Program-made: the position numbers and the translations under genes
Notes under the pieces: generated by a model
The model's database searches: none
Told to the model about the DNA's origin: nothing
What the model saw: only the letters and a program-made list of their open reading frames with translations
DNA from: Muricea muricata
Taxonomy: Eukaryota > Cnidaria > Anthozoa > Malacalcyonacea > Plexauridae
Direction of reading: 5' to 3'
DNA: 64,000 nt
Assembly (NCBI GenBank): GCA_963855995.1
Contig: OY979717.1
Coordinates: 22,904,746-22,968,745, forward strand
In this document: positions 872 to 61,786 of the stretch, piece after piece
Numbering within the stretch: the stretch's first letter is position 1
Layout of the letters: each line of letters opens with the position of its first letter

Positions 872-1665
872 GTGAGAGGTGCGAGTGTGGTCAGGCGTAT
901 TGAGGGGAAGAATACATTACTCCCTCTTTGGGGAGCGGGGCGAGGCACGCTTCACCTCCTTTTACATGTATCGTTACCGTTCATGACGATCTTATGGCAC
1001 AAGCAGGATAAGACATGGCTGACTTATTTACCAATGGGAGTCATAACAGGGACCTTTCAGTTATCTGCATTGTCCAAATTATATTTTGTTATAGAAATTA
1101 AACAACAAGCATCAGCCTTAGTTTAATACACAATTATATGGAAAAGCTATACGTCGTGGCTATCTTACGCTTGATCTTAAACCGACTACCCATGATCATC
1201 ACCGACTAAAAACAAATCTGTTGCCAAGGGAAAGGGGTGGCTTATACAACCAACATCGTAAAAACACAGTGTACAATAGGGGACGTTCAGGAAATGGAAT
1301 ATATCTTGAATGTACCGGCCATAACACTGCTCGAACACCCCTTACCCACCTCCCCCGACCCCTCAATGGACAACTTGCGCAAAGACTAACTGTTAGTTTG
1401 GGAATAAAGAAAGAAATTTCCAAAAAGAAATGATCAAAAGTAGAAAATGTACACATTTGTATTACGTGCAAGAATTTGTAACTAAATTAGTTTAATAGTT
1501 GCCAATTTACGCACGTAATACAAAAGTATACAAAATTTTCCAACTTTGCAGGGCTATATTTTTCGTATTTTACAACTTTTCGCAACCAGGCTTTGGACTT
1601 CTACTAATTTTAATGTGCTCTTTCTAGCTACGGTGATTGATTTCCTTCCTTTTACATACAACGCA

Positions 1666-4894: not shown

Positions 4895-4952
4895 TATGTA
4901 AACACTAATTAAACATACAGAAGTAATTGTATCATTTATTTATTAATGTTAC

Positions 4953-5470
4953 CTGTAGTGTTTGCATGTCTGTTGAAGTACCAGCACTCAGGAGAATCGC
5001 CAGCATTTCTATGTGGCTGAAGTTCACAATGAACCTCTTTGTTTAAGTGTATGTCATCAGGGTGGCGGGCCTTTATATAATCCTCAAAAAATTTCCACAC
5101 TCGCCCGCAGCTGTCAATAAATTCAAGACACGACTCTCGACAAACCTTTTTTTCCTGGAATACGCTTTGGGTTCCATCACAACCCGGGAAAAAAACACGA
5201 CACAGTAATACTATCAAGTTTTTCACGCACTTTTTAATAGACGGGATGTCCATTTTAAAAAAGGCGCTTACTGCAGCTGGGCCAAAATTAAGGTATTGGT
5301 CGTAGTTGGTGTGCGCCTTATTATTATTTTTAAATTGTTTAGAGGGAGTTGCACAGACGTAATTGGGCAATGTAACTCCATGATTTTGACAAAAAGGATG
5401 GGTGAAGTTTACCAGAGGATAACATGAACTGGAGTTAAGCAATGGTTCAGGTTCTGCAGGGACGCACGTC
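4953..5470 (-). CDS. Exon encoding a frizzled-type cysteine-rich domain
   Basis: This 518-bp open exon has an acceptor ending ATTGTATAG (AG at 5472-5471) and a donor CTACAG|GTAAC (GT at 5952-style position 4952-4951). It encodes about 172 residues with twelve cysteines in frizzled-CRD order: CYPLVNFTHPFC, then LPNYVC, then SIKKCVKNLIVLLCRVFFPGC, then KVCRESCLEFIDSC, then a final HCEL...C. The LPN motif, the C-x7-C spacing before FFPGC, and the CRESC box are CRD hallmarks. CRDs bind Wnt or lipid ligands outside the cell and occur in Frizzled, SFRP, ROR and other receptors. The transmembrane or kinase part is not visible here, so the parent gene is undetermined. Further exons should lie on both sides. 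A decayed relative lies at 21603-21978. Confidence 0.82.
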
Positions 5471-6354
5471 CTATACAATTTAAAGATTTAAAAAGCAAAT
5501 TAAATGGAATATGTTTGTATGGGAACGGAACATCCGGTAAATACGATGTTGAAATCGTTTTACCCGAGTAGAAATAACTAAAAAAATTTTTGACAGCATT
5601 TTCATATATTACTTGTTTCGTGAGATATTTGAACTCAAGCATGTGAGCTGTCAAACGTACTAATCAAGAATTATTTCTTAATTAGACGTCCTGTTTTAAG
5701 GATGACGAATTACAATCTTAGATGTTTTCGGAGTGATACAGCCTTTGTCCTTTATGTTAGCGTTCCTGTTCAGTCAGATTTTAACTTATATATTCTTTCC
5801 TTTTGGTTATTGCGTCTCCGTCTATTGTATTAGTAGGATCTGCCTTAGTTTGGTCTTTGAGCCCATTTGCTTAGCCCTTAATTTACTCGTCTTTTGTTGC
5901 TGCTCATAGCCTTTGTCCTTGCCATTTGTTTAGATTATTCATATTGCTGTACATATAAAAATTTTGACTTTTGCCGAGGCGCGTATTATTTCGCCAATAG
6001 ATAACATTTTGCTGTTGTATGTCCGTTCAGTTTTATATAATACATCATCAAATTTAGAACATTTAATTGGGTGATTCTGGTCGCGTGATATTAAATAAAA
6101 AGTTCCATTTTCCAAGAGTACAATGGAAAAGGTTCCATTGCACTCTCACAATTCCCATCCGTCAAAAGGCTCTTCGTACGGTCTTCGTAGTTTACTTTAG
6201 ACTAGTTTCGGTCTTGAGATGAATGCGAAATAATTCAAATACTAAAATACGACTCAAATGCGTGTTGTTTTAAATGTTGAATAAATTGGTTTTGAAAAAC
6301 AATAGTCTGGTATTATATAAAACAAGGAATGAATGTTTCTATTCGTGCAATATT
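5471..6354. other. Non-coding stretch next to CRD exon
   Basis: No coding exon or bounded repeat is recognised. For the minus-strand CRD gene this would be intron or upstream sequence. Confidence 0.4.
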
Positions 6355-34025: not shown

Positions 34026-34031
34026 CACTCC
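34026..34031. repeat. Target duplication, left (CACTCC)
   Basis: The 6-bp sequence directly before the left terminus AGTAGG recurs at 41778-41783 directly after the right terminus CCTACT. Confidence 0.93.
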
Positions 34032-34639
34032 AGTAGGTAACCCCCCCCATCCAGCGGCGGAAGTAATTAGTATGCAAGCACATTATTCAGCAAAGGAAGT
34101 AATTAGTATGCAGTAGTAGAATAGTCACAGGTATGGTCCCAGAAGTGACCAGAGCTCTTACCCCTAGAAATTAGTTCTTAGGTCGGCCGTGTGGACCAGT
34201 GCGCGCGCATGTTGACAGAAACCTGTTTAAAACGGGTTTGGTCCATTGTATTTGAGATATTACGTCATATCGTTCCACTTTTGCGCCAAAATGGTACAAT
34301 TGTGTGCTAGCAGTCACGCATCGGGCGCTTGCTTAAATATGTTCAAGTTACGTCGACTACGGAAACTTGTATTCAGCGAGGACATTATTTGGACTTTCTG
34401 CATCACCATTCCTATATAGAAGACGTTATTGGAAAGCACTTGCATTTTTAGCTATTATTTTAAACTGTTGTTTTAAATATTCCTGCTATTGCACGCTGTC
34501 CTTTTCCTGTATACTTTGTTCATTCCGTACATTTTACCAAACAGTTACATATAGCAAGTTAATATCGTTTACTCCGTCCCGAACGGTTTATATGTTGTTT
34601 AGGTCGTGGTATAGAAACGGCTTAAAATGGCCATGATGC

Positions 34640-36012
34640 AGTCGGTAAATCAAAATTGACCCTTAATTGACAATTCCCTACTTTTCTATTCTTTTTGTAC
34701 CAAGACAATCTATTGATTTATTATGGTTTCCTAGCACAATGCTAAAGGAAATAATCCTATAGTATAGGGGAAATACGTTTCATGCACTGGTGTGTACTTT
34801 GCCGCCGTTTTTGACACATTTCCCTGTTGACATTGCGCTGACGTTCTGTCTAACGAGAAGGAATAAGTTTTATTGAAAATTGGACTATATTCATATCATC
34901 AAAGTCTATACAGATAATCATAGTTTTCTAGTCAAGGCAATTGGGATAATTAAGAGAGGATATAATTTCCATCTCATGCAATGTTGTGTATTTTGTCACA
35001 AATTTTGACACTGTTGAATTTTTAATTACACTGTGCCAACGTTGTTTGTATTGAGGGGAAATTGGTCAGACTGTACTATTGGTCGGTGAAAAGGGGGAAA
35101 TTGGTTTTTATGTAGAGAAAGTTGGTAACTTGATTTAAACTGTGTCAGACTAATACATCGGGCAACGTAATTCTTTGCCCAAACTTCAAATGGCATGAGG
35201 CGGAACTGCTACTTTGTTCAGTCCTACGTATACCGTTTTGTTGTGTCATTGTATGTACACAATTAAGTGTGTGTTACATCATGCCCTAACTAATTGAAAT
35301 AATTGAATTTTTATTACACTGCACTAACGTTCTTTGTAATGAGGGGAACTTATAAAAGTTTAAAGTTCGTAGGGCAGGTTTAAAACAAAATTGACCCTTA
35401 CTTAACATTCTGCTATACTCATACAATATCATTTCTGAGTCAAAGGCAATAGAGGCGACTGAGAGGATATAATCCCGATAACCCCATGCAATGTTATTTA
35501 TTTTGTCACTGAGTTTGACACATTGAATTTTTAATTACACCGCACCAACATTTGTAATGAGGGGAAATTAACATTTTTTTATGACACTGCACTATTGCTC
35601 GTGAAATGGGGAAATTAGCTGTATATAGTGAAAGTTGGTATTTAATTTGAACTGCGTCAAGCAATCCGCTAATTTGCACATCTTACCGTCTGTTTTGTTG
35701 TGTGTATATAATATGTCCTAGCAAATCGATGCATATTGTTTTATAAAGGTTTAAGGCTAGTAGGGCATATTTAAAAGAAAATTGACCCTAATTTGACATC
35801 CTGCTACTCATATCTGATGTCATCGCATTAGTGTACTCAGATCGCAGATTTATCGTAGCTTCTTGAGACAATTTAATACGGACAATAGAGGTAATTTCTC
35901 ATTACAGTAGGCAATGTTTGTGATACTGAACTGCCACGTGGCAATAAGGACAATCCTGACACATTTCATTCTTTCGCAATGTTCTGCGTAATGAGGGGAA
36001 AGTTAATCAGTT
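34640..36012. repeat. Diverged ~400-bp tandem units in left arm
   Basis: Blocks such as AAAATTGACCCTTA, GAGAGGATATAAT, TTTTTAATTACACTG and AATGAGGGGAAATT recur in the same order at roughly 34650, 35390 and 35780. The mirror copy lies at 39798-41170. Confidence 0.75.
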
Positions 36013-36059
36013 TTGTTCAATGTTGGTACTTTGAACTGCTATCAAACTAATAAATCATT

Positions 36060-36570
36060 TATTACGGGACAGTTTTACTTGTCTCCCATCAAGAGACGCC
36101 CGGAACATTTTAAGGGACACACGGGAGTGACGGGACTTTCTTACGGGACACATTGCGGGACACCTTTAGGCGTCCCGATGTCCCGTACTAACCAATGGCC
36201 TGGCTACTATTACTGGAAATATTTTAACATCTACAAAATAAGAGACCCTATTCGGGCCACTTTTACGCGTCTCGCTTTAAAAGGACACGCGGAAACCTCT
36301 TACGGGACATAAGGGACTTTTTTACGAGACATAAGACATTTTTACATGTAGGCATCCCGATGTCCCTCACGTCCCGTCCATCTACATAATAGCATGCTTA
36401 TCATTACTGGAAATACCTTAACATATAGGGACGTAAGGGACTTCATTACGGAACAGTTCTACGCGTCCCGCTTCAAAGGACGTCCGGGACATTGTTACGG
36501 GACGCTCTTACGGGACACAAGGGACTTTATCACGGGACATTTTTAGGCGTCCCGCTGTCCCTTGCGTCCC
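36060..36570. repeat. GGGAC-rich repeat module
   Basis: The motif ACGGGAC or its complement GTCCCGT appears more than twenty times, in repeated ~185-bp modules that also contain ACTGGAAATA and TTAGGCGTCCCG. The mirror copy is 39240-39750, and one further module lies in the spacer (37600-37710). Confidence 0.8.
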
Positions 36571-36776
36571 GTTCCAACTAACATGTCATATGAACCCAAA
36601 GGAGTTCATTACGAACCCTTTTTACGCAACTTGCCTCATCAAGGGGCCGGTGAAAACACCTGCGAGCTATTTGTGAGCAGTTAGTAACGTAAAGGGAGAG
36701 TTTTCGAATTATAGGAGGAAAAGCAACTAAACCAACGCTCAAATGTTTTATTTTTAACACATTTATTAGTAATAAC

Positions 36777-37559
36777 TCAATTCATAAGGCGTGTGGAGAT
36801 ATTGTCATCATCATCATCATCCTCATTGCTTTCAGGAAAGTACTGTCCGTCTTCTAACAGAAGTTCCAAAAGAAATTTCCTTTTTTTAATAGCAGCAGTC
36901 AAAGCTTCGTCAGGATCGAAATCATCTTCGTCAACGAATGCATCTTTGGTTTTCATTATTTTCCGATGCACTGGATCCCTTTTCATTTGCGTCATCCATT
37001 TCAGGCGATCCAAATAAATATTTCCTAGTTTCTTTCGAAGGTCTGGTAAAATTTCTGAAAAGGCTTGTTTCTTTGCGTCAATTTCACTAAAACCACCATT
37101 TTGAAAACTTTGTACAATTTCATTGTGCTTTGTACGAAGTTCCATCGCTGCTTCGTGTATTAATACTTCCCATGGGTTCTCTTCTTCGCTTTCGTCAGAG
37201 TCGTTTATTTCTTCGGAACTTTCAGCGTCTCCCTCGCCTGATGAACTGAAGATATCTTCATCAGATGCTGTCGATGTTTCGTCATCGGATTCATTTCGCA
37301 TTCTTTTTTCACTCAACGTTTCTTTCGAAGTCCTTTCGTCACTACTTGATGCTGTCGACATTTCATCATCCGATTCACTCCGCACTCTTTTTCCATTCAA
37401 CATTTCTTCAGATTCTCTTTGATCACTAAGCGATTTGGCTTTAGAAAGATAATGTTGTCTTTCTTCTCCTGAGAGTCGATGGATATCTGCTAAATGGTTT
37501 GATAATTTGGCGAGATTCTTCTTACTGCAAATAGGACAATCCCTACGCCTCCGTGGCAT
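36777..37559 (-). CDS. Acidic zinc-finger-like protein, 260 aa, Polinton-like cargo
   Basis: An intronless frame from ATG 37559 to a stop at 36777. The N-terminus (MPRRRRDCPICSKKNL, then LSNHLADIHRLS) gives C-x2-C-x12-H-x4-H spacing, consistent with one C2H2 finger. Residues 50-130 are highly acidic and Ser-rich with two similar ESDDEMSTAS-like repeats. The C-terminus (about residues 135-260) is helical and charged, with KRDPVHRKIMKTKDAF, and ends in an Asp run. Function is unknown; finger plus acidic region would suit a DNA- or chromatin-binding regulator. The last third lies in the left inverted arm, so a broken copy of that part is at 38757-39033. It is the last gene of a same-strand trio. 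Confidence 0.8.
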   Translation of the reverse strand: MPRRRRDCPICSKKNLAKLSNHLADIHRLSGEERQHYLSKAKSLSDQRESEEMLNGKRVRSESDDEMSTASSSDERTSKETLSEKRMRNESDDETSTASDEDIFSSSGEGDAESSEEINDSDESEEENPWEVLIHEAAMELRTKHNEIVQSFQNGGFSEIDAKKQAFSEILPDLRKKLGNIYLDRLKWMTQMKRDPVHRKIMKTKDAFVDEDDFDPDEALTAAIKKRKFLLELLLEDGQYFPESNEDDDDDDNISTRLMN

Positions 37560-37612
37560 GTTACAAACTGCGTTTTATCGTTTATAGTACATACATAAAA
37601 AGTGTCCCGCGA

Positions 37613-37710
37613 CAAAACCCTCACATGCTTATAAAATGTCAAAGTATTTCCGGCAATAGTAGCCATGGTATTGGTTAGTACGGGACGTCGCAATGCCTAA
37701 AAATGCATCA
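37613..37710. repeat. Spacer copy of the GGGAC module
   Basis: GTATTTCC-GCAATAGTAGCCA and TTGGTTAGTACGGGAC match right-arm sequence around 39590-39640 in the same orientation but are diverged. It sits between two cargo genes and could be an intergenic control module. Confidence 0.65.
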
Positions 37711-37844
37711 CGATATAACCTGTCAGCTCCCTCGACCTTTTGGATCATAATAAACACTTTCCAAGCACTTGTCAACTGTTGCTTGGGCCATGTCTTCTTT
37801 TTAAATGAAACAAAGAAAGCGTGAATCCGCGTCATAAAAAAAAA

Positions 37845-38093
37845 TTAGTTTTCTGATGTCTCTGTTGCCTGATCGTTGGGCTCAGTTACTGCTGAAATTG
37901 TACTTCCTGGCGGGTTTAACTGTTTGTCAATGGGGCCATAGTTTTTAATTGTCTTACTGTTATATCCCATCTGCAGGTGACCTTCCAAATTTAAATCGTT
38001 ACGGCCAAAACTTACACCAAATTTAAACATTTTCTGTCTGTTATGATTTTTGTCTCTTTTGATTTTATCACTCTTACTATGACAAGTGCCCAT
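37845..38093 (-). CDS. Small Met-Gly protein, 82 aa, Polinton-like cargo
   Basis: ATG 38093 begins MGTCHSKSDKIKRDK. Met-Gly with Cys, Ser and following basic residues fits an N-myristoylation signal, possibly with palmitoylation at Cys4, so membrane attachment is plausible. The remainder is polar with a Thr/Ser/Glu-rich end. No homologue is recognised. It lies between the 151- and 260-codon genes on the same strand. The frame extends upstream without an ATG, and the MG start is the only in-frame ATG before residue 25. Confidence 0.65.
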   Translation of the reverse strand: MGTCHSKSDKIKRDKNHNRQKMFKFGVSFGRNDLNLEGHLQMGYNSKTIKNYGPIDKQLNPPGSTISAVTEPNDQATETSEN

Positions 38094-38186
38094 GTTACCT
38101 CTTACAAGCAAACTGAATGAAATGAAGAAAAACAACAAAACAGTACTTTTTAAAACTGTAACTTATTTCTTTGGTACATACACTGT

Positions 38187-38642
38187 CTAGTTACATTTTA
38201 ATTTGCACACACATAAGACATAATCAATTAGATTGTTAATAAATGCAGTTCTTTCAGATTCAGAATATATCTGGAACCAAACGAAACATGACATATCAAA
38301 CAGCGCTTCAAAGTAACCTCTGTGGATTGCTGATGGTTCTGGATACTTTAAAATCTTGCACGCTTCCACGACTCCTCGCCACATAACATCATGGTTCAAC
38401 AGTTCAAGAGCTCGTTCGGCATAACTTATCCACCGCTCTTCGTTGTCAAGCATCTTAAAGCATTCTCTGAACCTTGTCCATTGATTACCATCAGTTTGAT
38501 CACGTTTGGCCAATGTTTCTTCTTCCAATTGTTGAATCTTACGATAGACCATTTCCGTGAACACAAGATCAATGAGTTTTTCAACAGTCAGGGCATCAAA
38601 GTCAATTTCATCTACATACATTTGTTTAAGCAGGTGTGCCAT
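38187..38642 (-). CDS. Helical unknown protein, 151 aa, Polinton-like cargo
   Basis: ATG 38642 to TAG 38187, intronless. The sequence begins MAHLLKQMYVDEIDFDALTV and is predicted by eye to be mainly amphipathic helix, with a Cys/Trp-containing end (MSCFVWFQIYSESE, VCKLKCN). No signal peptide or clear membrane segment. I recognise no family. It is upstream of the two other cargo genes, entirely within the unique spacer, so it is present only once. Confidence 0.7.
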   Translation of the reverse strand: MAHLLKQMYVDEIDFDALTVEKLIDLVFTEMVYRKIQQLEEETLAKRDQTDGNQWTRFRECFKMLDNEERWISYAERALELLNHDVMWRGVVEACKILKYPEPSAIHRGYFEALFDMSCFVWFQIYSESERTAFINNLIDYVLCVCKLKCN

Positions 38643-38756
38643 TATAATTTTCTTTGAGTTTTTTAGACCAACTGTTCACAAGCACACTCGCTAAATAGAC
38701 TAACGTAATCATTGAATTCTCGAATGTTTTAAGTGAAATAAGCCGGACAAACCTGA

Positions 38757-39033
38757 GCCTTTTCAGAAATTTTACCAGAAACTAGGAAATATTTATTTGG
38801 ATCGCCTGAAATGGATGACGCAAATGAAAAGGGATCCAGTGCATCGGAAAATAATGAAAACCAAAGATGCATTCGTTGACGAAGATGATTTCGATCCTGA
38901 CGAAGCTTTGACTGCTGCTATTAAAAAAAGGAAATTTCTTTTGGAACTTCTGTTAGAAGACGGACAGTACTTTCCTGAAAGCAATGAGGATGATGATGAT
39001 GATGACAATATCTCCACACGCCTTATGAATTGA
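38757..39033 (+). pseudogene. Broken copy of the 260-codon gene's 3' end
   Basis: The right arm duplicates the final part of the zinc-finger-like gene in opposite orientation (LDRLKWMTQMKRD through the Asp run). It lacks the N-terminal two thirds and has an 11-bp deletion relative to the left arm near 38780 (ACCAG joins AAACTAGG directly). It cannot encode the complete protein. Confidence 0.85.
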
Positions 39034-41777
39034 GTTATTACTAATAAATGTGTTAAAAATAAAACATTTGAGCGTTGGTTTAGTTGCTTTTCCCCCTATA
39101 ATTCGAAAACTCTCCCTTTACGTTACTAACTGCTCACAAATAGCTCGCAGGTGTTTTCACCGGCCCCTTGATGAGGCAAGTTGCGTAAAAAGGGTTCGTA
39201 ATGAACTCCTTTGGGTTCATATGACATGTTAGTTGGAACGGGACGCAAGGGACAGCGGGACGCCTAAAAATGTCCCGTGATAAAGTCCCTTGTGTCCCGT
39301 AAGAGCGTCCCGTAACAATGTCCCGGACGTCCTTTGAAGCGGGACGCGTAGAACTGTTCCGTAATGAAGTCCCTTACGTCCCTATATGTTAAGGTATTTC
39401 CAGTAATGATAAGCATGCTATTATGTAGATGGACGGGACGTGAGGGACATCGGGATGCCTACATGTAAAAATGTCTTATGTCTCGTAAAAAAGTCCCTTA
39501 TGTCCCGTAAGAGGTTTCCGCGTGTCCTTTTAAAGCGAGACGCGTAAAAGTGGCCCGAATAGGGTCTCTTATTTTGTAGATGTTAAAATATTTCCAGTAA
39601 TAGTAGCCAGGCCATTGGTTAGTACGGGACATCGGGACGCCTAAAGGTGTCCCGCAATGTGTCCCGTAAGAAAGTCCCGTCACTCCCGTGTGTCCCTTAA
39701 AATGTTCCGGGCGTCTCTTGATGGGAGACAAGTAAAACTGTCCCGTAATAAATGATTTATTAGTTTGATAGCAGTTCAAAGTACCAACATTGAACAAAAC
39801 TGATTAACTTTCCCCTCATTACGCAGAACATTGCGAAAGAATGAAATGTGTCAGGATTGTCCTTATTGCCACGTGGCAGTTCAGTATCACAAACATTGCC
39901 TACTGTAATGAGAAATTACCTCTATTGTCCGTATTAAATTGTCTCAAGAAGCTACGATAAATCTGCGATCTGAGTACACTAATGCGATGACATCAGATAT
40001 GAGTAGCAGGATGTCAAATTAGGGTCAATTTTCTTTTAAATATGCCCTACTAGCCTTAAACCTTTATAAAACAATATGCATCGATTTGCTAGGACATATT
40101 ATATACACACAACAAAACAGACGGTAAGATGTGCAAATTAGCGGATTGCTTGACGCAGTTCAAATTAAATACCAACTTTCACTATATACAGCTAATTTCC
40201 CCATTTCACGAGCAATAGTGCAGTGTCATAAAAAAATGTTAATTTCCCCTCATTACAAATGTTGGTGCGGTGTAATTAAAAATTCAATGTGTCAAACTCA
40301 GTGACAAAATAAATAACATTGCATGGGGTTATCGGGATTATATCCTCTCAGTCGCCTCTATTGCCTTTGACTCAGAAATGATATTGTATGAGTATAGCAG
40401 AATGTTAAGTAAGGGTCAATTTTGTTTTAAACCTGCCCTACGAACTTTAAACTTTTATAAGTTCCCCTCATTACAAAGAACGTTAGTGCAGTGTAATAAA
40501 AATTCAATTATTTCAATTAGTTAGGGCATGATGTAACACACACTTAATTGTGTACATACAATGACACAACAAAACGGTATACGTAGGACTGAACAAAGTA
40601 GCAGTTCCGCCTCATGCCATTTGAAGTTTGGGCAAAGAATTACGTTGCCCGATGTATTAGTCTGACACAGTTTAAATCAAGTTACCAACTTTCTCTACAT
40701 AAAAACCAATTTCCCCCTTTTCACCGACCAATAGTACAGTCTGACCAATTTCCCCTCAATACAAACAACGTTGGCACAGTGTAATTAAAAATTCAACAGT
40801 GTCAAAATTTGTGACAAAATACACAACATTGCATGAGATGGAAATTATATCCTCTCTTAATTATCCCAATTGCCTTGACTAGAAAACTATGATTATCTGT
40901 ATAGACTTTGATGATATGAATATAGTCCAATTTTCAATAAAACTTATTCCTTCTCGTTAGACAGAACGTCAGCGCAATGTCAACAGGGAAATGTGTCAAA
41001 AACGGCGGCAAAGTACACACCAGTGCATGAAACGTATTTCCCCTATACTATAGGATTATTTCCTTTAGCATTGTGCTAGGAAACCATAATAAATCAATAG
41101 ATTGTCTTGGTACAAAAAGAATAGAAAAGTAGGGAATTGTCAATTAAGGGTCAATTTTGATTTACCGACTGCATCATGGCCATTTTAAGCCGTTTCTATA
41201 CCACGACCTAAACAACATATAAACCGTTCGGGACGGAGTAAACGATATTAACTTGCTATATGTAACTGTTTGGTAAAATGTACGGAATGAACAAAGTATA
41301 CAGGAAAAGGACAGCGTGCAATAGCAGGAATATTTAAAACAACAGTTTAAAATAATAGCTAAAAATGCAAGTGCTTTCCAATAACGTCTTCTATATAGGA
41401 ATGGTGATGCAGAAAGTCCAAATAATGTCCTCGCTGAATACAAGTTTCCGTAGTCGACGTAACTTGAACATATTTAAGCAAGCGCCCGATGCGTGACTGC
41501 TAGCACACAATTGTACCATTTTGGCGCAAAAGTGGAACGATATGACGTAATATCTCAAATACAATGGACCAAACCCGTTTTAAACAGGTTTCTGTCAACA
41601 TGCGCGCGCACTGGTCCACACGGCCGACCTAAGAACTAATTTCTAGGGGTAAGAGCTCTGGTCACTTCTGGGACCATACCTGTGACTATTCTACTACTGC
41701 ATACTAATTACTTCCTTTGCTGAATAATGTGCTTGCATACTAATTACTTCCGCCGCTGGATGGGGGGGTTACCTACT
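38757..41777. repeat. Right inverted arm of Polinton-like element
   Basis: Complement of 34032-37064. The inner boundary is where the match stops just upstream of AGCCTTTTCAG. Confidence 0.93.
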
Positions 41778-41783
41778 CACTCC
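41778..41783. repeat. Target duplication, right (CACTCC)
   Basis: Matches 34026-34031 exactly. Confidence 0.93.
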
Positions 41784-43983: not shown

Positions 43984-46978
43984 TTAAGAGGAGATTTTTT
44001 AGAAAGTCGCGTTTTCTTGCGAAAACCGCTCAAAACTTAGCGACCAAGCCTTCGCGAAAAAATGCTCTGGCGCCATCTTTTGTTTTGAAAGTTTTCTAAA
44101 AATATTTGCGAAGAAAAACAGAATTTTACTGGATTTTTGGTTATGTCATGGGGCAAAACATTGCTAAATATAAAGAAGGATAACGTGGTAAGTGTAATAT
44201 CGTATTTAATGGACGTTATTTGAATTATTATTATGTTAATATGCACACGTATCTGACTCAGGAGTGAGCATATTTTAGCTGCAAAATTATCTGCTATTTT
44301 AAATTAATAATAAAACTGATTGAAAGCCACTGCTTTCGTCCTCTGGATGATGATCAGCTTGTTTACAACTCGTTGATAACATAAGTACATGGAAAACGTT
44401 AAAGGATTTTGCATTTTTAAGGAAAATTTGAGCATTTGTAATTTTAAATCCCTTTACTTCAATTTACTGATTTTACAGGCATTCAGTATACAACTTCATG
44501 CCATAGGCTATATAATCTGAAACGCCCTTTTTAGGAATGAAAATAAAATTTTCAGTCATATGTTTACAGTAAAGTTTTGAATTACACCAGCATCATGGAT
44601 GCAACAATCTGGTAGGAAGGTTGCTGAACCAGGACTGGTCATAAAGCAGAGCCTAACAGTCAACTGAGGCAGCATGCGTTACTAGTAAAGACACCAGACA
44701 GGCTCAAGGAGCCAAGCATGTTGACATCAAAACAAAATTGCCTATATGGTCATAAGGGCCAAATATTTTTTTTTCTTTGATAATTGCCTGAGGATTAACT
44801 CAGACCCCCCCCCCCAATAACCTGAAGTAAATCAATTCCTCTAGTAGTTAACCATGAAAGTATTTTTTTATAGATCTCTGTGACATTACTATTACAATCT
44901 TGAAGATATGATTACAGTATCTGAAAACATCAACCTCATTCTGTCAGTGCTGGGTGACAAAAACCAGCACATTGTGGAGTATTTTGTCTACAGTATAAAG
45001 TTATCAACATTTTCATTATATTCACACAAGAATAGATTGTATCATAAATAATAATCTGTGATTTAATAAATATTCATTTTCATCTTTCATTTTTTGTTTT
45101 CTTTAATAGCCTGCAAGAAAAGGTCTTCTTACAAATTCTGATATTTTTGCACATTTATTATGATACACTGTATATGCATGATTTAAATTATGCCTGGCCT
45201 GGCAGAATTCTAATAATTAGGTCCCACCCACCCATGTGTTTATTTTCATGTGTTTAAAATGTGTTTTTATCATTTAAAATACAATGACCAAATTGATTTG
45301 AAAGAAACATGAGTCATGATTGTTGGTGTGGACAGTACCTGTTAATGGTAGCACTCAGACATACTATAATTTGGTTGGTTTTAAAAATCATAAAAAACGG
45401 CCTTCGACCGCGCACTCACATATTTTTTGTACACTTACATACCCCTGGCTTAATGTGAAAGACAATTTAGCTTGTTCAGGTTTAGTTCTGGGGTTTATTT
45501 TAACCTGTGAAATTTAGGTAAAGCAGTATAAGGACAACCCCAATTTGACCAGATACACTAACATGATATAAACATTTAGGATTCCATTAAAAATCTTTCA
45601 AAATCAAATATTCATGAGTTTGAACTTGAGAAAAATAGTTGAAAATGTGTTTATATCGTTTAAAATACAATGACTGAATTAATTTGAAAGGAACATGAAC
45701 CATGAATGTTGGTGTGGACAGTACCTGTTAATGGTAGCACTTGGACATAATTTGGTTGGTTTTAAAAATCATAAAAAACGGCCTTCGACCGCGCACTCAG
45801 ATTTTGACCAAAACATATTTTTTGTAGACTTAAATACCTGTGGCTTAATGTGAAAAACAATTTAGCTTGTTCAGGTTTAGTTTTAGGGCTCATTTTAGCC
45901 TGTGAAGTTCAGGTTGAGCATTACAGAAATAACCCCAATTTGACCAGATACACTAACATGATAAAAACACCCAGGATTGCATTAAAAATCTTTCAAAATC
46001 AAATATTCATGAGTTTGAACTTGAGAAAAATAGTTGAGAATATGTTTATATTGTTTAAAATACAATGGCTGAATTAATTTGAAAGGAACATGAATCATAA
46101 ATGTTGGTGTGGACAGTACCTGTTAATGGTAACAGATATTGGACAGCCTTGAAAATCATGAAAAAGGCCTTCGACCGCACACTCAGATTTTGACCAAAAC
46201 ATATTTTTTATAGACTTACATACCCCTGGCTTAATGTGAAAGACAATTTAGCTTGTTCAGACAGGGTTATGGGGTAATTTTGAACGTTCAACTTTATTTT
46301 AGGACAACATACTATTGTTGTGTATTTGATGATTATGCAAATTTCACAAAAACAGCAAAAAGTAGTTTAAAGGCAATATGATGCGCAAATCTCAATTTTT
46401 GAACAATCAGGACATTTCCAAAGTGTTTAGAGATGAAATACTTTTACAGTATTAGCATATGAGCAAAAATCAGATTTTCTGAGATACAAATATTATGGTG
46501 GACAATTCTACAACGAAATTTATTAACATGCAAATACTGTTAATCACTTGGCCAATGACGTCCTCCAAACAGTGAATTTATCAGTTTTAATCTTTCAATG
46601 ATTGTTCTGTATCGTGAAAAAGTATTTTATGAACTTGATATCCAAATGAAATAGGGATATAAATGTAATATTTTACCTTCCACGTTCCATACTACCATAA
46701 GTAAATCAAACTCGTATCTTTATGACGGCAACATTCACACCAGTAAGACTTGATTATTATCCATTCATATGAACGAAAAGCCTAATACTTTTTTACCATG
46801 GATTGTTAGTCATTTGTTCAAAACACTTCTCATTTTTTCCATCATTTGCCCATGTAAAAAGCACTCAAAAAACCTTCGAAAGGAACACGCCGCCATCTTG
46901 TAAATGCGCATACCAATCCGTGCGACCTGATTGGTTTTGAGCAAACAATACGCGATTCTGTAAAAAATCTCCTCTTAA
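43984..46978. mobile_element. TTAA-flanked nested element
   Basis: GAGGAGATTTTTTAGAAAG and its partner CTGTAAAAAATCTCCTC are inverted repeats immediately inside TTAA (43984-43987 and 46975-46978). TTAA duplications are typical of piggyBac and Kolobok elements. The ~2.99-kb interior holds tandem repeats but no transposase, so it is non-autonomous. It interrupts the gene of the surrounding element. Confidence 0.82.
45263..46300. repeat. Three tandem ~385-bp units
   Basis: Each unit has, in order, TTTAAAATACAATG, GTTGGTGTGGACAGTACCTG, a CGGCCTTCGACCGC box, TTAATGTGAAA-ACAATTTAG and GACCAGATACACTAACATGA. Units start near 45263, 45655 and 46040; the third is truncated. Confidence 0.88.
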
Positions 46979-51962: not shown

Positions 51963-53464
51963 TTACTTTTTACCCCCAAGTTGGACGATGAGAGCAGAAT
52001 CCAAATAGATCTTATCTACATCGACATCATGCATCTCATTACCAACCCATGAACTGTGACCCTCGTTGTTGCGAACGAGCTTGCTCTCATCAGGCTTCCC
52101 GTAAATTTCAATGAAAGGAATACCAACACGCCACTTGCGAAGGTCTCGCTATAGATTTAGATTTCGCCGTGTTGAGAAACGATCAGACCACTCTGGTAGC
52201 AACAGGCTGCCAGATTCGGAGAAAGGTGCAAATTCATATATTTCATGGGTTTCTTCATACTCACTATCTTCTGGAAACACTAGTGTTGTCATAAATCTGG
52301 ATAGAGTAGTTTTAAGATGGCATTTCCAACCTTTATCAGTTAAGTAATCGAACAAACTTTTGTCTTCGCCTTTAGGCATGTTTGGTTCCAGACCTGGCAA
52401 GGTGTACTTGTGCTTCAAGAGAAATCCAACTTAGTCTGGGATTGTGGAACCAAGTCGATCCGGAAGATTATGTAGCGCACAATCTACTTTAGCAAGAGAC
52501 TGACGTAGTTCGCACTTTGCGCTGATTTCAAAATGTTCTTCTATTTCTCTTTTTTGAGGGCTGAAATAAGCTTGCTTCAAACTTCTCTCTTCGCATAAAA
52601 TACTGTATGTAATGGTAAGTCGAAAGCCTTCAGGAATTGGTCTGACTTCATGAATACAGTCTCCATAGAACGCGGCCCATTGAAACACACTAGAATCATT
52701 CGAGAGTTTTGAAAAGTCAAATACATGTTCATGACCATCATGGCTAATGACTAATTCCCCTCCTTTATGAGGCGAAGGCAAACATACAATAAGCGTTCCT
52801 ATCATATTGTCATGCGAGGGAGTGTCGACGTGTGGCTTGAAAAATCCATCTTTGCTATAAATACCCAATTTGTTTCTTTTCAGGCAAATTCTTCTTCCTG
52901 GGGCAAGTTCTTCTTCTATATGGCGATTAATTGAAAATTTCCCAGGTAATGCATCTGATTGTATGAACCTATCGTTTGTGATTTTATTTACCCATACGTA
53001 GCCAAAGTCAAATCTATCCGTCTCTATCTCATCGGCTAAACGAACTTCAGGATCGAAGACTGTTTTCATTTCCTTTAGATCTCCGAATCACGAGGGATTA
53101 CTGAATTTCAAAAGCTCCTCGGAAAGGATATTGTTGAGCAAAAATTCCTTCCATTCTTCGCCTTCTTCTGAATCTGCATTATGGGTTTGACTTTCAAGAG
53201 AAAATCCTCGAGATCTTCATCTTGTAGACGTACATTCCCTCCACAACAAAACACAGAATTAGAAAAGGCATGCTCCAGGCGGTCTATAAGTGGTTCGAAG
53301 TTTTTCACATCATTTCGAAAATAGTACCATTGCCGAATGTGATGACTGTTGACGACATAGCGTATTGGACGATTGCGCAGTGAATTCTGCACCGATAAAT
53401 TGTACATATGCGGTGCTTGATTTGCTTGTTCTCGTTGATCACGTTTAGCGAACACTTGGGCCAT
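51963..53464 (-). pseudogene. 2OG-Fe(II) oxygenase (prolyl-hydroxylase-like) pseudogene
   Basis: From ATG 53464 the minus strand encodes an intronless ~500-codon protein. The catalytic core has PHVDT (iron-binding H-x-D), NMIGTLIVCLPSPHKGGELV, AAFYGDCIHEVRPI (distal His) and GFRLTITYS (2OG-binding Arg). The C-terminus ends DKIYLDSALIVQLGGKK. Stand-alone oxygenases of this type occur widely in fungi and marine invertebrates. The frame shifts once near 53190, and three in-frame stops interrupt it: TGA at 53090-53088, TAA at 52433-52431 and TAG near 52150. Clear coding similarity continues past each, so these are disabling mutations. Flanking sequence shows no poly(A) tract or target duplication that would prove a retrocopy. 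Confidence 0.85.
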
Positions 53465-54367
53465 TTTTTGACTAGCAATTCTGCCCGTCAATTATAAAAT
53501 TATTACCATATAAAACGTGGCTAGTTTATCTTCAATATGTGCTAGCTGCTGGAACTTGATCCTCGTTTCAAAGGTTTGAATGTCATTCTGCCACTTATGG
53601 TGTGCTTATCCATATATGGTAATGGTCGCGAGTATTTATTCCAGGAATAACATTTTTCTTCCAGGAAAAGGCTAAAGAAAAATTCCGCGTAAATTTGTTA
53701 TTATTCTGCCTCTGGTGTTTAATAGCCTAACACTGTATGCTGTTTTGCCGAGTTCCTGGGAAAAATTCAGTACAGCTCACCTACTACAGCAAACTGAGCA
53801 AAGCTACGCATCGTTTTAACGAGCAGTATCACCTGAGTAATGTGATTTTATATCACCATAATTCAAATTAGCTTGATTACAAATTTATCCACAATACTTC
53901 CACGGTCAAGACAACACTATGAAAGCAAACATATTTCAATTCAGTCTCAATTCAAAATAGTGGATAGAATAAAATGTTATGTTGCCATAGTGACAACGGG
54001 GTCCAAGCTTAGCGGTCAAATGAAAGCAGCTTACTATAAGGCTTTAATTTTGGACGATTTGTCTCTGTAGTCGAAAACCGACTTATGCCTGGCGTATTAT
54101 TTATCAATGTTTAATGTTAACCTCGGAATTTGTGTGACCTGTCTTCCTTTATGTGAGTCGAGTATTTGACGTATCGGTTAATAGTGTAATACCCATTTGA
54201 GCATACGCCAATCACCATTCGCCACGGTTTATTCATTCGCAAGTGCCTGACACGACTCCTGACTGACCAATCAATCGCTTTGTTTCAGAAAATAAATAAT
54301 ATTGCAAACTCTTTATGAGCCGCCTGTTGGCGGTCGCACGAACAGGCTTCGTTTTGTGTCTATTCTT

Positions 54368-61786
<7,419 letters not shown>

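What the first reader, a model, noticed from the sequence alone, without database searches (positions are those of the whole stretch)
34026..41783. 7.75-kb palindromic Polinton-like element without Polinton core genes
Termini AGTAGGTAACC, ~3-kb near-identical inverted arms and a perfect 6-bp duplication (CACTCC) match Polinton/Maverick hallmarks. The element is half the usual size and has no polymerase, integrase, protease or capsid gene. The near-identity of the arms suggests recent movement or ongoing arm-to-arm conversion. A non-autonomous, mostly inverted-repeat Polinton derivative carrying its own small gene set would be unusual.
Basis: partly seen in the sequence, partly recalled or inferred. 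Interest (0 to 1): 0.88.

Follow-up and report, generated by a model that had tools for sequence, protein, structure and literature searches.

The report
Palindromic non-autonomous Polinton element family
A 7.7-kb piece of mobile DNA in this animal genome is a stripped-down, almost mirror-image relative of the virus-like Polinton transposons; it has jumped to several places, and its two halves have been kept nearly identical, which may show how such elements copy their ends.

Summary
The element is 34032-41777 (7746 bp), flanked by a perfect 6-bp duplication, with inverted arms of 3034 and 3022 bp differing by one substitution and two short gaps. Its genome is held. Its first 82 bp recur (95-99%) at both ends of two 18-20-kb elements: C4:11.78 with PolB and rve integrase plus chromodomain, and C2:31.59, which carries this element's arm and ORF1 beside an integrase 95-100% identical to that of C4:11.78, though no PolB was found in it. 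So it is a non-autonomous Polinton derivative.

New: (1) three other loci share its exact inner junction, so the palindrome arose once and moved; (2) 40 loci matching three arm queries have inverted arms, so the form recurs; (3) the two ends of one element are each other's nearest kin in 7 of 9 elements; (4) one copy has one arm of this element's type and one of another copy's.

I infer palindromes born by end duplication during Polinton DNA copying, mobilised in trans, with arms homogenised before or at insertion. Birth mechanism and timing are not proven.

The parts
34026..34031 (.). left 6-bp target-site duplication CACTCC
   Evidence: read directly; equals 41778-41783
34032..37065 (+). left arm, tip AGTAGGTAACC; 3034 bp to the inner junction of the palindrome
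   Evidence: self-alignment; inner edge from the sequences
36013..36650 (.). zone of short GTCCC/GGGAC-centred repeats in the left arm (34.5 per kb against 0.59 per kb in the window outside the element); possible cis-acting site
   Evidence: function inferred only
36777..37559 (-). ORF1, 260 aa, zinc-finger-like N-terminus (CPIC...H...H, by eye) and acidic middle; straddles the inner edge of the left arm; 188 relatives at E<=0.01 in the protein collection, no Pfam family above cut-off
37066..38755 (.). central unpaired part, 1690 bp
37845..38138 (-). small frame, 97 aa, contains MGTCHSK (myristoylation-like by eye); overlaps a 130-bp stretch (37939-38066) found again at 82-83% shortly ahead of the integrase gene in L049 and L054; coding status unproven
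38187..38642 (-). ORF2, 151 aa, helical model; Polinton-linked gene under purifying selection
38755..38756 (.). birth junction of the palindrome (ACCTG|AGCC), shared by 4 loci; the 4 relatives without it continue ACCTG|TTCTCC
38756..41777 (-). right arm, 3022 bp, mirror of the left arm minus a 12-bp deletion near its inner end
38776..39033 (+). truncated copy of the ORF1 3' part in the right arm
   Evidence: tblastn residues 176-260; frame 38797-39033
39160..39797 (.). mirror copy of the GTCCC/GGGAC repeat zone
41778..41783 (.). right 6-bp target-site duplication CACTCC

Best explanation
It is a non-autonomous, palindromic derivative of a Polinton/Maverick. SHOWN: its 82-bp tip and 6-bp duplication are those of full-size Polintons in the same genome; its arm plus ORF1 form the integrase-side end of one of them (C2:31.59); the palindrome junction is the same in 4 loci with different flanks, so it arose once and then moved as a palindrome; relatives without that junction have a different second end, so the far end was replaced by an inverted copy of the near end; the two arms were made alike again after copies split. 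INFERRED: the end was duplicated while the DNA was being copied as a linear molecule (snap-back or template switch of a displaced strand, as expected if Polinton PolB primes with protein at both ends); polymerase and integrase came in trans from full-size Polintons, of which this genome has many with long open PolB frames; arms were homogenised in that replicating form, where one strand can pair with itself, rather than slowly in the chromosome. The element thus works like a defective or satellite genome of a Polinton, keeping tips, a repeat zone and ORF1/ORF2.
For: Outer 82 bp shared at 95-99% with 7 of 7 ends tested, at C4:11.78 (both), C2:31.59 (both; 500 bp on the left), C9:7.44, C1:111.38 and C2:69.13. 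Polinton genes in C4:11.78, in C9:7.44 (PolB, rve and others 85-100% identical in pieces, in the 10 kb read) and, without PolB, in C2:31.59, which has this arm and ORF1. C2:69.13 (81-bp TIR, 6.6 kb) has this arm at one end and at the other 783 bp 96.3% identical to the right end of C4:11.78: the expected parent form. Junction ACCTG|AGCC in 4 of 4 palindrome copies, ACCTG|TTCTCC in 4 of 4 relatives. Arm substitutions within an element 1 (window) and 1 (C8:8.03) against 14-16 between them (Poisson P about 5e-6 for 1 or fewer when 15 are expected); 17 diagnostic sites or indels, each the same in both arms of each element; ends of one element are sisters in 7 of 9 elements. C1:12.81 mixed arms: 8 shared derived states (6 with the window, 2 with C8:8.03), 0 conflicting. 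A roughly 0.86-kb outer block in both arms of C1:113.16 and in no other palindrome of the window type. 40 loci with inverted arms. ORF2 within 20 kb of a PolB match in 33 of 78 places, about 0.65 expected. PolB frames up to 1396 aa.
Against: No extrachromosomal form, protein-primed replication or trans-mobilisation was observed; PolB is assigned by Pfam only. The one full-size element with this arm has no PolB match, and the paired one with PolB shares only the tip. The junction shows no clean microhomology by eye. Two copies inserted in opposite orientation, a deletion and later use of the outer ends would give the same product. ORF1 shows little sign of selection in this set (dN/dS 0.38 to 1.45 where dS is above 0). 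C12:9.33 has no duplication and a rearranged inside. The two ends of C1:108.4 are not resolved as sisters, and the sister pairs C45 (93/86) and C8:8.03 (91/88) fall short of the tool's starred support. The window tip AGTAGG is not the exact (AGT)2 of vertebrate Mavericks.
Confidence: 0.7

Rival explanations
1. The palindrome was born by chromosomal accident: two Polinton copies in opposite orientation, a deletion between them, then mobilisation by the two like outer ends. No copying error during replication is needed.
For: Gives the same anatomy; mosaic and rearranged copies exist (C12:9.33, C1:108.4, C1:111.38); no clean microhomology at the junction.
Against: Does not explain why inverted-arm forms recur at 40 loci with three unlike arms, nor why arms become alike again after copies split.
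Confidence: 0.25
2. Arms are kept alike by ongoing gene conversion inside the chromosome after insertion, not during transposition.
For: Long inverted repeats 1.7 kb apart are plausible conversion partners (general knowledge); the window arms differ by only one substitution.
Against: C1:12.81 sits in the genome with 21 arm-to-arm substitutions, one-arm deletions and a one-arm insert not erased, and C1:113.16 with 7 substitutions. The window copy may simply be young.
Confidence: 0.3
3. Assembly artefact: one arm duplicated by a fold-back read or a collapsed haplotype.
For: Near-identical 3-kb arms are hard to assemble; C1:108.4 shows a duplicated end plus flank that could be an assembly or segmental duplication.
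Against: Perfect 6-bp duplication at the outer ends, four loci with the same junction and different flanks, and arm-specific differences.
Confidence: 0.03
4. An unrelated cut-and-paste transposon with long arms (Foldback/Galileo type).
For: Long internally repetitive arms resemble Galileo (start of the abstract of PMC3573991).
Against: Same tips, 6-bp duplications and sequence continuity with rve- and PolB-bearing elements.
Confidence: 0.02

Closest known systems
Polinton/Maverick (adintovirus-like) elements
   Same: 6-bp duplication, AGT... tips; a paired full-size relative in the same genome carries PolB, rve integrase with chromodomain, and protease and AAA matches below cut-off
   Different: 7.7 kb, no core genes, arms about 3.0 kb; intact vertebrate Mavericks are 12.7-24.6 kb with TIRs of 46-1447 bp (PMC8097293, section 7)
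Non-autonomous DNA transposons in general (recalled)
   Same: keeps the ends, lacks the enzymes, several copies
   Different: most of the length is inverted repeat; it keeps an intact gene that is selected in its family (ORF2); the ends evolve together
Foldback/Galileo elements (search listing and start of abstract only)
   Same: long, internally repetitive inverted arms
   Different: 6-bp duplication and Polinton ancestry
Defective genomes of protein-primed linear viruses and end replacement in linear replicons such as those of Streptomyces (recalled, not looked up)
   Same: one end copied over the other, TIRs of very different length
   Different: here seen as integrated, mobile copies in an animal genome; the process itself was not observed

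Membership tests
Polinton/Maverick | 6-bp target-site duplication | tested here: met
   CACTCC in the window; 18 of 22 paired elements perfect, 3 at 5 of 6, 1 at 2 of 6
Polinton/Maverick | terminal inverted repeats with a repeated AG/AGT end motif | tested here: met
   AGTAGG in the window, AGTAGA in the second class; exact AGTAGT seen at one locus of the third class. By the strict (AGT)2 or (AG)3 motif of vertebrates the window itself is imperfect
Polinton/Maverick | encodes protein-primed DNA polymerase B | tested here: not met
   absent from the element; a PolB family match is present in same-tip C4:11.78
Polinton/Maverick | encodes retroviral-like (rve) integrase | tested here: not met
   absent from the element; present in C4:11.78 and C2:31.59
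Polinton/Maverick | capsid, ATPase and protease genes | tested here: not met
   none of 11 frames of C4:11.78 matches the element at E<=1e-3; which of those frames is the capsid was not tested
non-autonomous Polinton derivative | shares ends and internal sequence with a full-size Polinton of the same genome | tested here: met
   500 bp of the tip, arm pieces, ORF1 and part of the centre in C2:31.59; that element has rve but no PolB match
non-autonomous Polinton derivative | has moved without its own enzymes | tested here: met
   4 loci with the same junction, each with a perfect duplication of a different sequence
non-autonomous Polinton derivative | mobilised in trans by Polinton enzymes | not testable with these tools
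   inferred from shared tips and duplications
Bcl-2-like protein (ORF2) | Bcl-2 fold | tested here: inconclusive

The most novel reading that the evidence does not exclude
Polintons in this animal replicate as free linear molecules whose displaced strands fold back; this repeatedly spawns self-mirrored satellite genomes that hitch-hike on intact Polintons and have their two ends equalised at every cycle. C1:12.81, with one arm of each type, is a copy that escaped or preceded the equalising step. TIR length in Polintons (0.08 to 3.9 kb among elements with the same tip here) would then be a running record of end replacement, not a fixed trait.
Probability: 0.4. Interest if true: 0.78.

Novelty: new variant of a known kind. 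Interest (0 to 1): 0.62.

Why it matters
Polinton replication and transposition are inferred mainly from their genes (recalled). A family whose ends can be compared with each other gives sequence evidence on that process: ends of one element are homogenised, ends are swapped between lineages (C1:113.16, C2:69.13), and defective palindromes spread. It also suggests that searches for core genes miss much Polinton-derived DNA: 40 loci with inverted arms were found here, although only some were read. ORF2, selected within its family and of unknown fold, is intact in the four palindrome copies of the window type, so a defective element may still provide something to itself or to its helper.

Tried and rejected
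IMG/VR viral contigs: no relative of ORF1 or ORF2 with single-sequence queries. Rfam: nothing in the window at the gathering scores. PHROGs: only weak matches, best E 0.0085. PDB by sequence: none for ORF2, one at E 0.2 for ORF1. ORF2 as a Bcl-2 relative: looked plausible by eye, not upheld; nothing convincing among viral models. Protein hits carry no taxonomy or context, so the host could not be named; animal is inferred from the Fz domain and a weak DED match. The ORF1 search of the own genome did not complete (9 tries). The 13.2-kb reading of C1:108.4, which is one of the 22 tip pairs, was dropped: an inner tip followed by the same ATTGAA shows a 7,795-bp element plus a duplicated end and flank. 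Literature: six searches listed no paper whose title or abstract start describes palindromic Polinton derivatives; the lists are capped, mostly titles and abstract starts were seen, Kapitonov and Jurka 2006 is not held, and Repbase reports were not searchable, so a prior report is not excluded. Four further searches concerned adintoviruses, Bcl-2 and panhandle genomes. Seen of papers: PMC8097293 passages and section 7; PMC6431247 passages; PMC11071296 passages.
Full report
WHAT IS THERE. The window holds an element at 34032-41777 (7746 bp) between two copies of CACTCC. Its arms pair over 34032-37065 and 38756-41777 (3034 and 3022 bp) with one mismatch, one short gap near the tip and one 12-bp gap. 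The centre is 1690 bp. ORF1 (36777-37559, minus) runs from the centre into the left arm, so the right arm carries only its 3' part; ORF2 (38187-38642, minus) lies in the centre. A zone of GTCCC/GGGAC repeats sits in each arm (34.5 per kb against 0.59 in the window outside the element).

SAME TIPS ELSEWHERE. The genome is held as G000, 453 Mb in 74 contigs. The tip pattern with a variable C run occurs 52 times, with none in the reversed control. By eye 44 of the 52 form 22 outward pairs, 12 with AGTAGGTAACC and 10 with AGTAGATTACC; 8 are unpaired. Of the 12, 8 have a perfect 6-bp duplication, 3 match at 5 of 6 (C1:111.38, C2:31.59, C2:69.13; counted by eye) and 1 at 2 of 6 (C12:9.33). One of the 8 perfect ones, C1:108.4, is really a shorter element with the same duplication. 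All 10 of the other class are perfect. One unpaired tip, C45:97691, has a partner at 102675 with a perfect CATACA duplication; of the other 7 only C9:7.44 was read. A third arm type was reached through ORF2 fragments: C9:9972938-9978803 has tips AGTAGTAATATAGG, arms of at least 1163 bp at 99.57%, and the duplication AATTTA, read by eye from the printed ends.

THE RELATIVES ARE POLINTONS. C4:11.78 (18.3 kb, TIR 303 bp, duplication GTCACA) has PolB in two frames (PF03175, E 1.1e-23 and 2.7e-13), rve (1.1e-12) with a chromodomain (8.8e-12), a C5 protease match below cut-off (0.0025) and an AAA match below cut-off. It shares only the outer 82 bp with the window element (97.6 and 98.8%). C2:31.59 (20.1 kb, TIR 82 bp) begins with this element's arm (first 500 bp at 96%, pieces at 93-97%) and a frame-broken ORF1, has no ORF2 match, and continues with integrase (95-100% identical in pieces to that of C4:11.78), protease-like (87.5%) and AAA (96%) genes; no PolB match was found in it. 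C9:7.44, read over 10 kb from its one tip, has PolB, rve and other genes 85-100% identical in pieces. None of 11 frames of C4:11.78 matches the window element. Intact vertebrate Mavericks have 6-bp duplications, AGT or AG repeat tips, 12.7-24.6 kb and TIRs of 46-1447 bp (PMC8097293).

HOW THE PALINDROME AROSE. TIR lengths among the 12 paired AGTAGGTAACC elements are 81, 82, 303, about 1530 (three elements), 1585, about 3030 (window, C8:8.03, and C1:12.81 in fragments) and about 3940 bp; C12:9.33 has 1261 bp and then a rearranged inside. C2:69.13 is the simplest small form: this arm, ORF1 and ORF2 at one end, and at the other an end 96.3% identical to the right end of C4:11.78 over 783 bp. C8:13.43, C1:108.4 and C2:17.26 are alike in the part tested except that roughly the outer 0.4 kb of that second end is replaced by 1.53 kb or more of the first end. 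In the window, C8:8.03, C1:12.81 and C1:113.16 the second end is gone and an inverted copy of the first end follows ORF2 at the same base (ACCTG|AGCC), where the four relatives read ACCTG|TTCTCC. One birth, then movement to at least four places, each with its own perfect duplication, is the plain reading. C1:111.38 shows that the opposite, PolB end can be duplicated as well: both 1585-bp arms carry about the first 190 residues of PolB.

ENDS EVOLVE TOGETHER. If arms mutated separately after one birth, the two arms of an element should differ as much as arms of different copies. They do not: 1 substitution within the window and 1 within C8:8.03, against 14-16 between them. At 17 sites or short indels the two copies differ and in each both arms agree. 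A roughly 0.86-kb outer block distinguishes both arms of C1:113.16 from the other palindromes of this type and resembles the end of another Polinton (91% to L060). In a maximum-likelihood tree of 19 end sequences (about 700 columns) the two ends of one element are sisters in 7 of 9 two-armed elements, three of them with starred support, two as identical rows and two with lower support; C1:108.4 is unresolved and C1:12.81 is split. C1:12.81 is informative: its left arm shares 2 derived states with C8:8.03, its right arm 6 with the window, none conflict (a 2-bp indel counted once), and its outer duplication AATGCC is perfect. It also keeps 21 substitutions between its arms and single-arm indels, so homogenisation is not continuous in the chromosome.

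HOW COMMON. Loci where an arm query matches both strands, neighbours less than 15 kb apart: 12 of 23 (window arm, 44 of 65 matches used), 15 of 24 (AGTAGATTACC arm, 41 of 75 used), 13 of 27 (third arm, 43 of 91 used); all 40 have the outward order. The rows dropped are the weaker and shorter ones. Only 40 candidates of each first look were scored, so counts are lower bounds; many third-type loci match only the inner half of the query and their tips were not seen; spans reach 15.7 kb, so a few may be two elements.

GENES. ORF2 has 150 listed matches in the genome, the number scored. Of the first 78 rows, 33 lie within 20 kb of a PolB match, mostly 8.3-10.6 kb, against about 0.65 expected under even spread; I used the first 95 or so rows of the 178 PolB matches, leaving out some second pieces. 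Between lineages dN/dS is 0.09-0.16, though dS exceeds 1 there; it is 0.15-0.43 among closer copies, and three very close pairs (3-7 differences) are uninformative or above 1. It is thus a Polinton-linked gene under purifying selection, intact in the palindromes of the window type. Two AlphaFold models (pLDDT 77 and 75) are helical; a Bcl-xL complex is the best but weak hit of the first, a lead only. ORF1 shows little constraint in the copies compared (dN/dS 0.38-1.45 where dS is above 0).

MECHANISM AND LIMITS. Shown: ancestry, one shared junction, movement, homogenised ends. Inferred: copying as a linear molecule with snap-back, help in trans by Polinton enzymes, homogenisation at or before insertion. 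A chromosomal birth followed by mobilisation cannot be excluded. 

Noticed in passing
window 4936-5487 (-), 52431-53087 (-), 54296-54784 (+): Host-like gene pieces: Fz domain (PF01392), 2OG-Fe(II) oxygenase (PF13640), and a DED match below cut-off (PF01335); they suggest an animal genome.
   Followed up: no
window 979-1122: 50-aa match (42%, E about 1e-4) to the AAA ATPase frame of Polinton C4:11.78, a possible Polinton relic in the window.
   Followed up: no
window 45252-46260: Tandem array of a 395-bp unit, 2.6 copies.
   Followed up: no
window 58128-61110: Five AT/TA dinucleotide tracts of 97-189 bp.
   Followed up: no
L043 1134-6526 (C1:108.4): A duplicated element end with the same ATTGAA flank 5.4 kb further on: segmental duplication or assembly duplicate.
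   Followed up: partly
L044/L045 (C1:111381614-111392324): Element with 1585-bp arms made from the opposite, PolB end of a Polinton: both arms carry the start of PolB.
   Followed up: partly
L055 1645-2172: GRF zinc-finger protein (PF06839, E 4e-19) in Polinton C4:11.78.
   Followed up: no
G000, many places: 178 PF03175 matches, many in open frames of 1000-1396 aa, several with equal scores and 1301-aa frames: this genome may hold recently active Polintons.
   Followed up: partly
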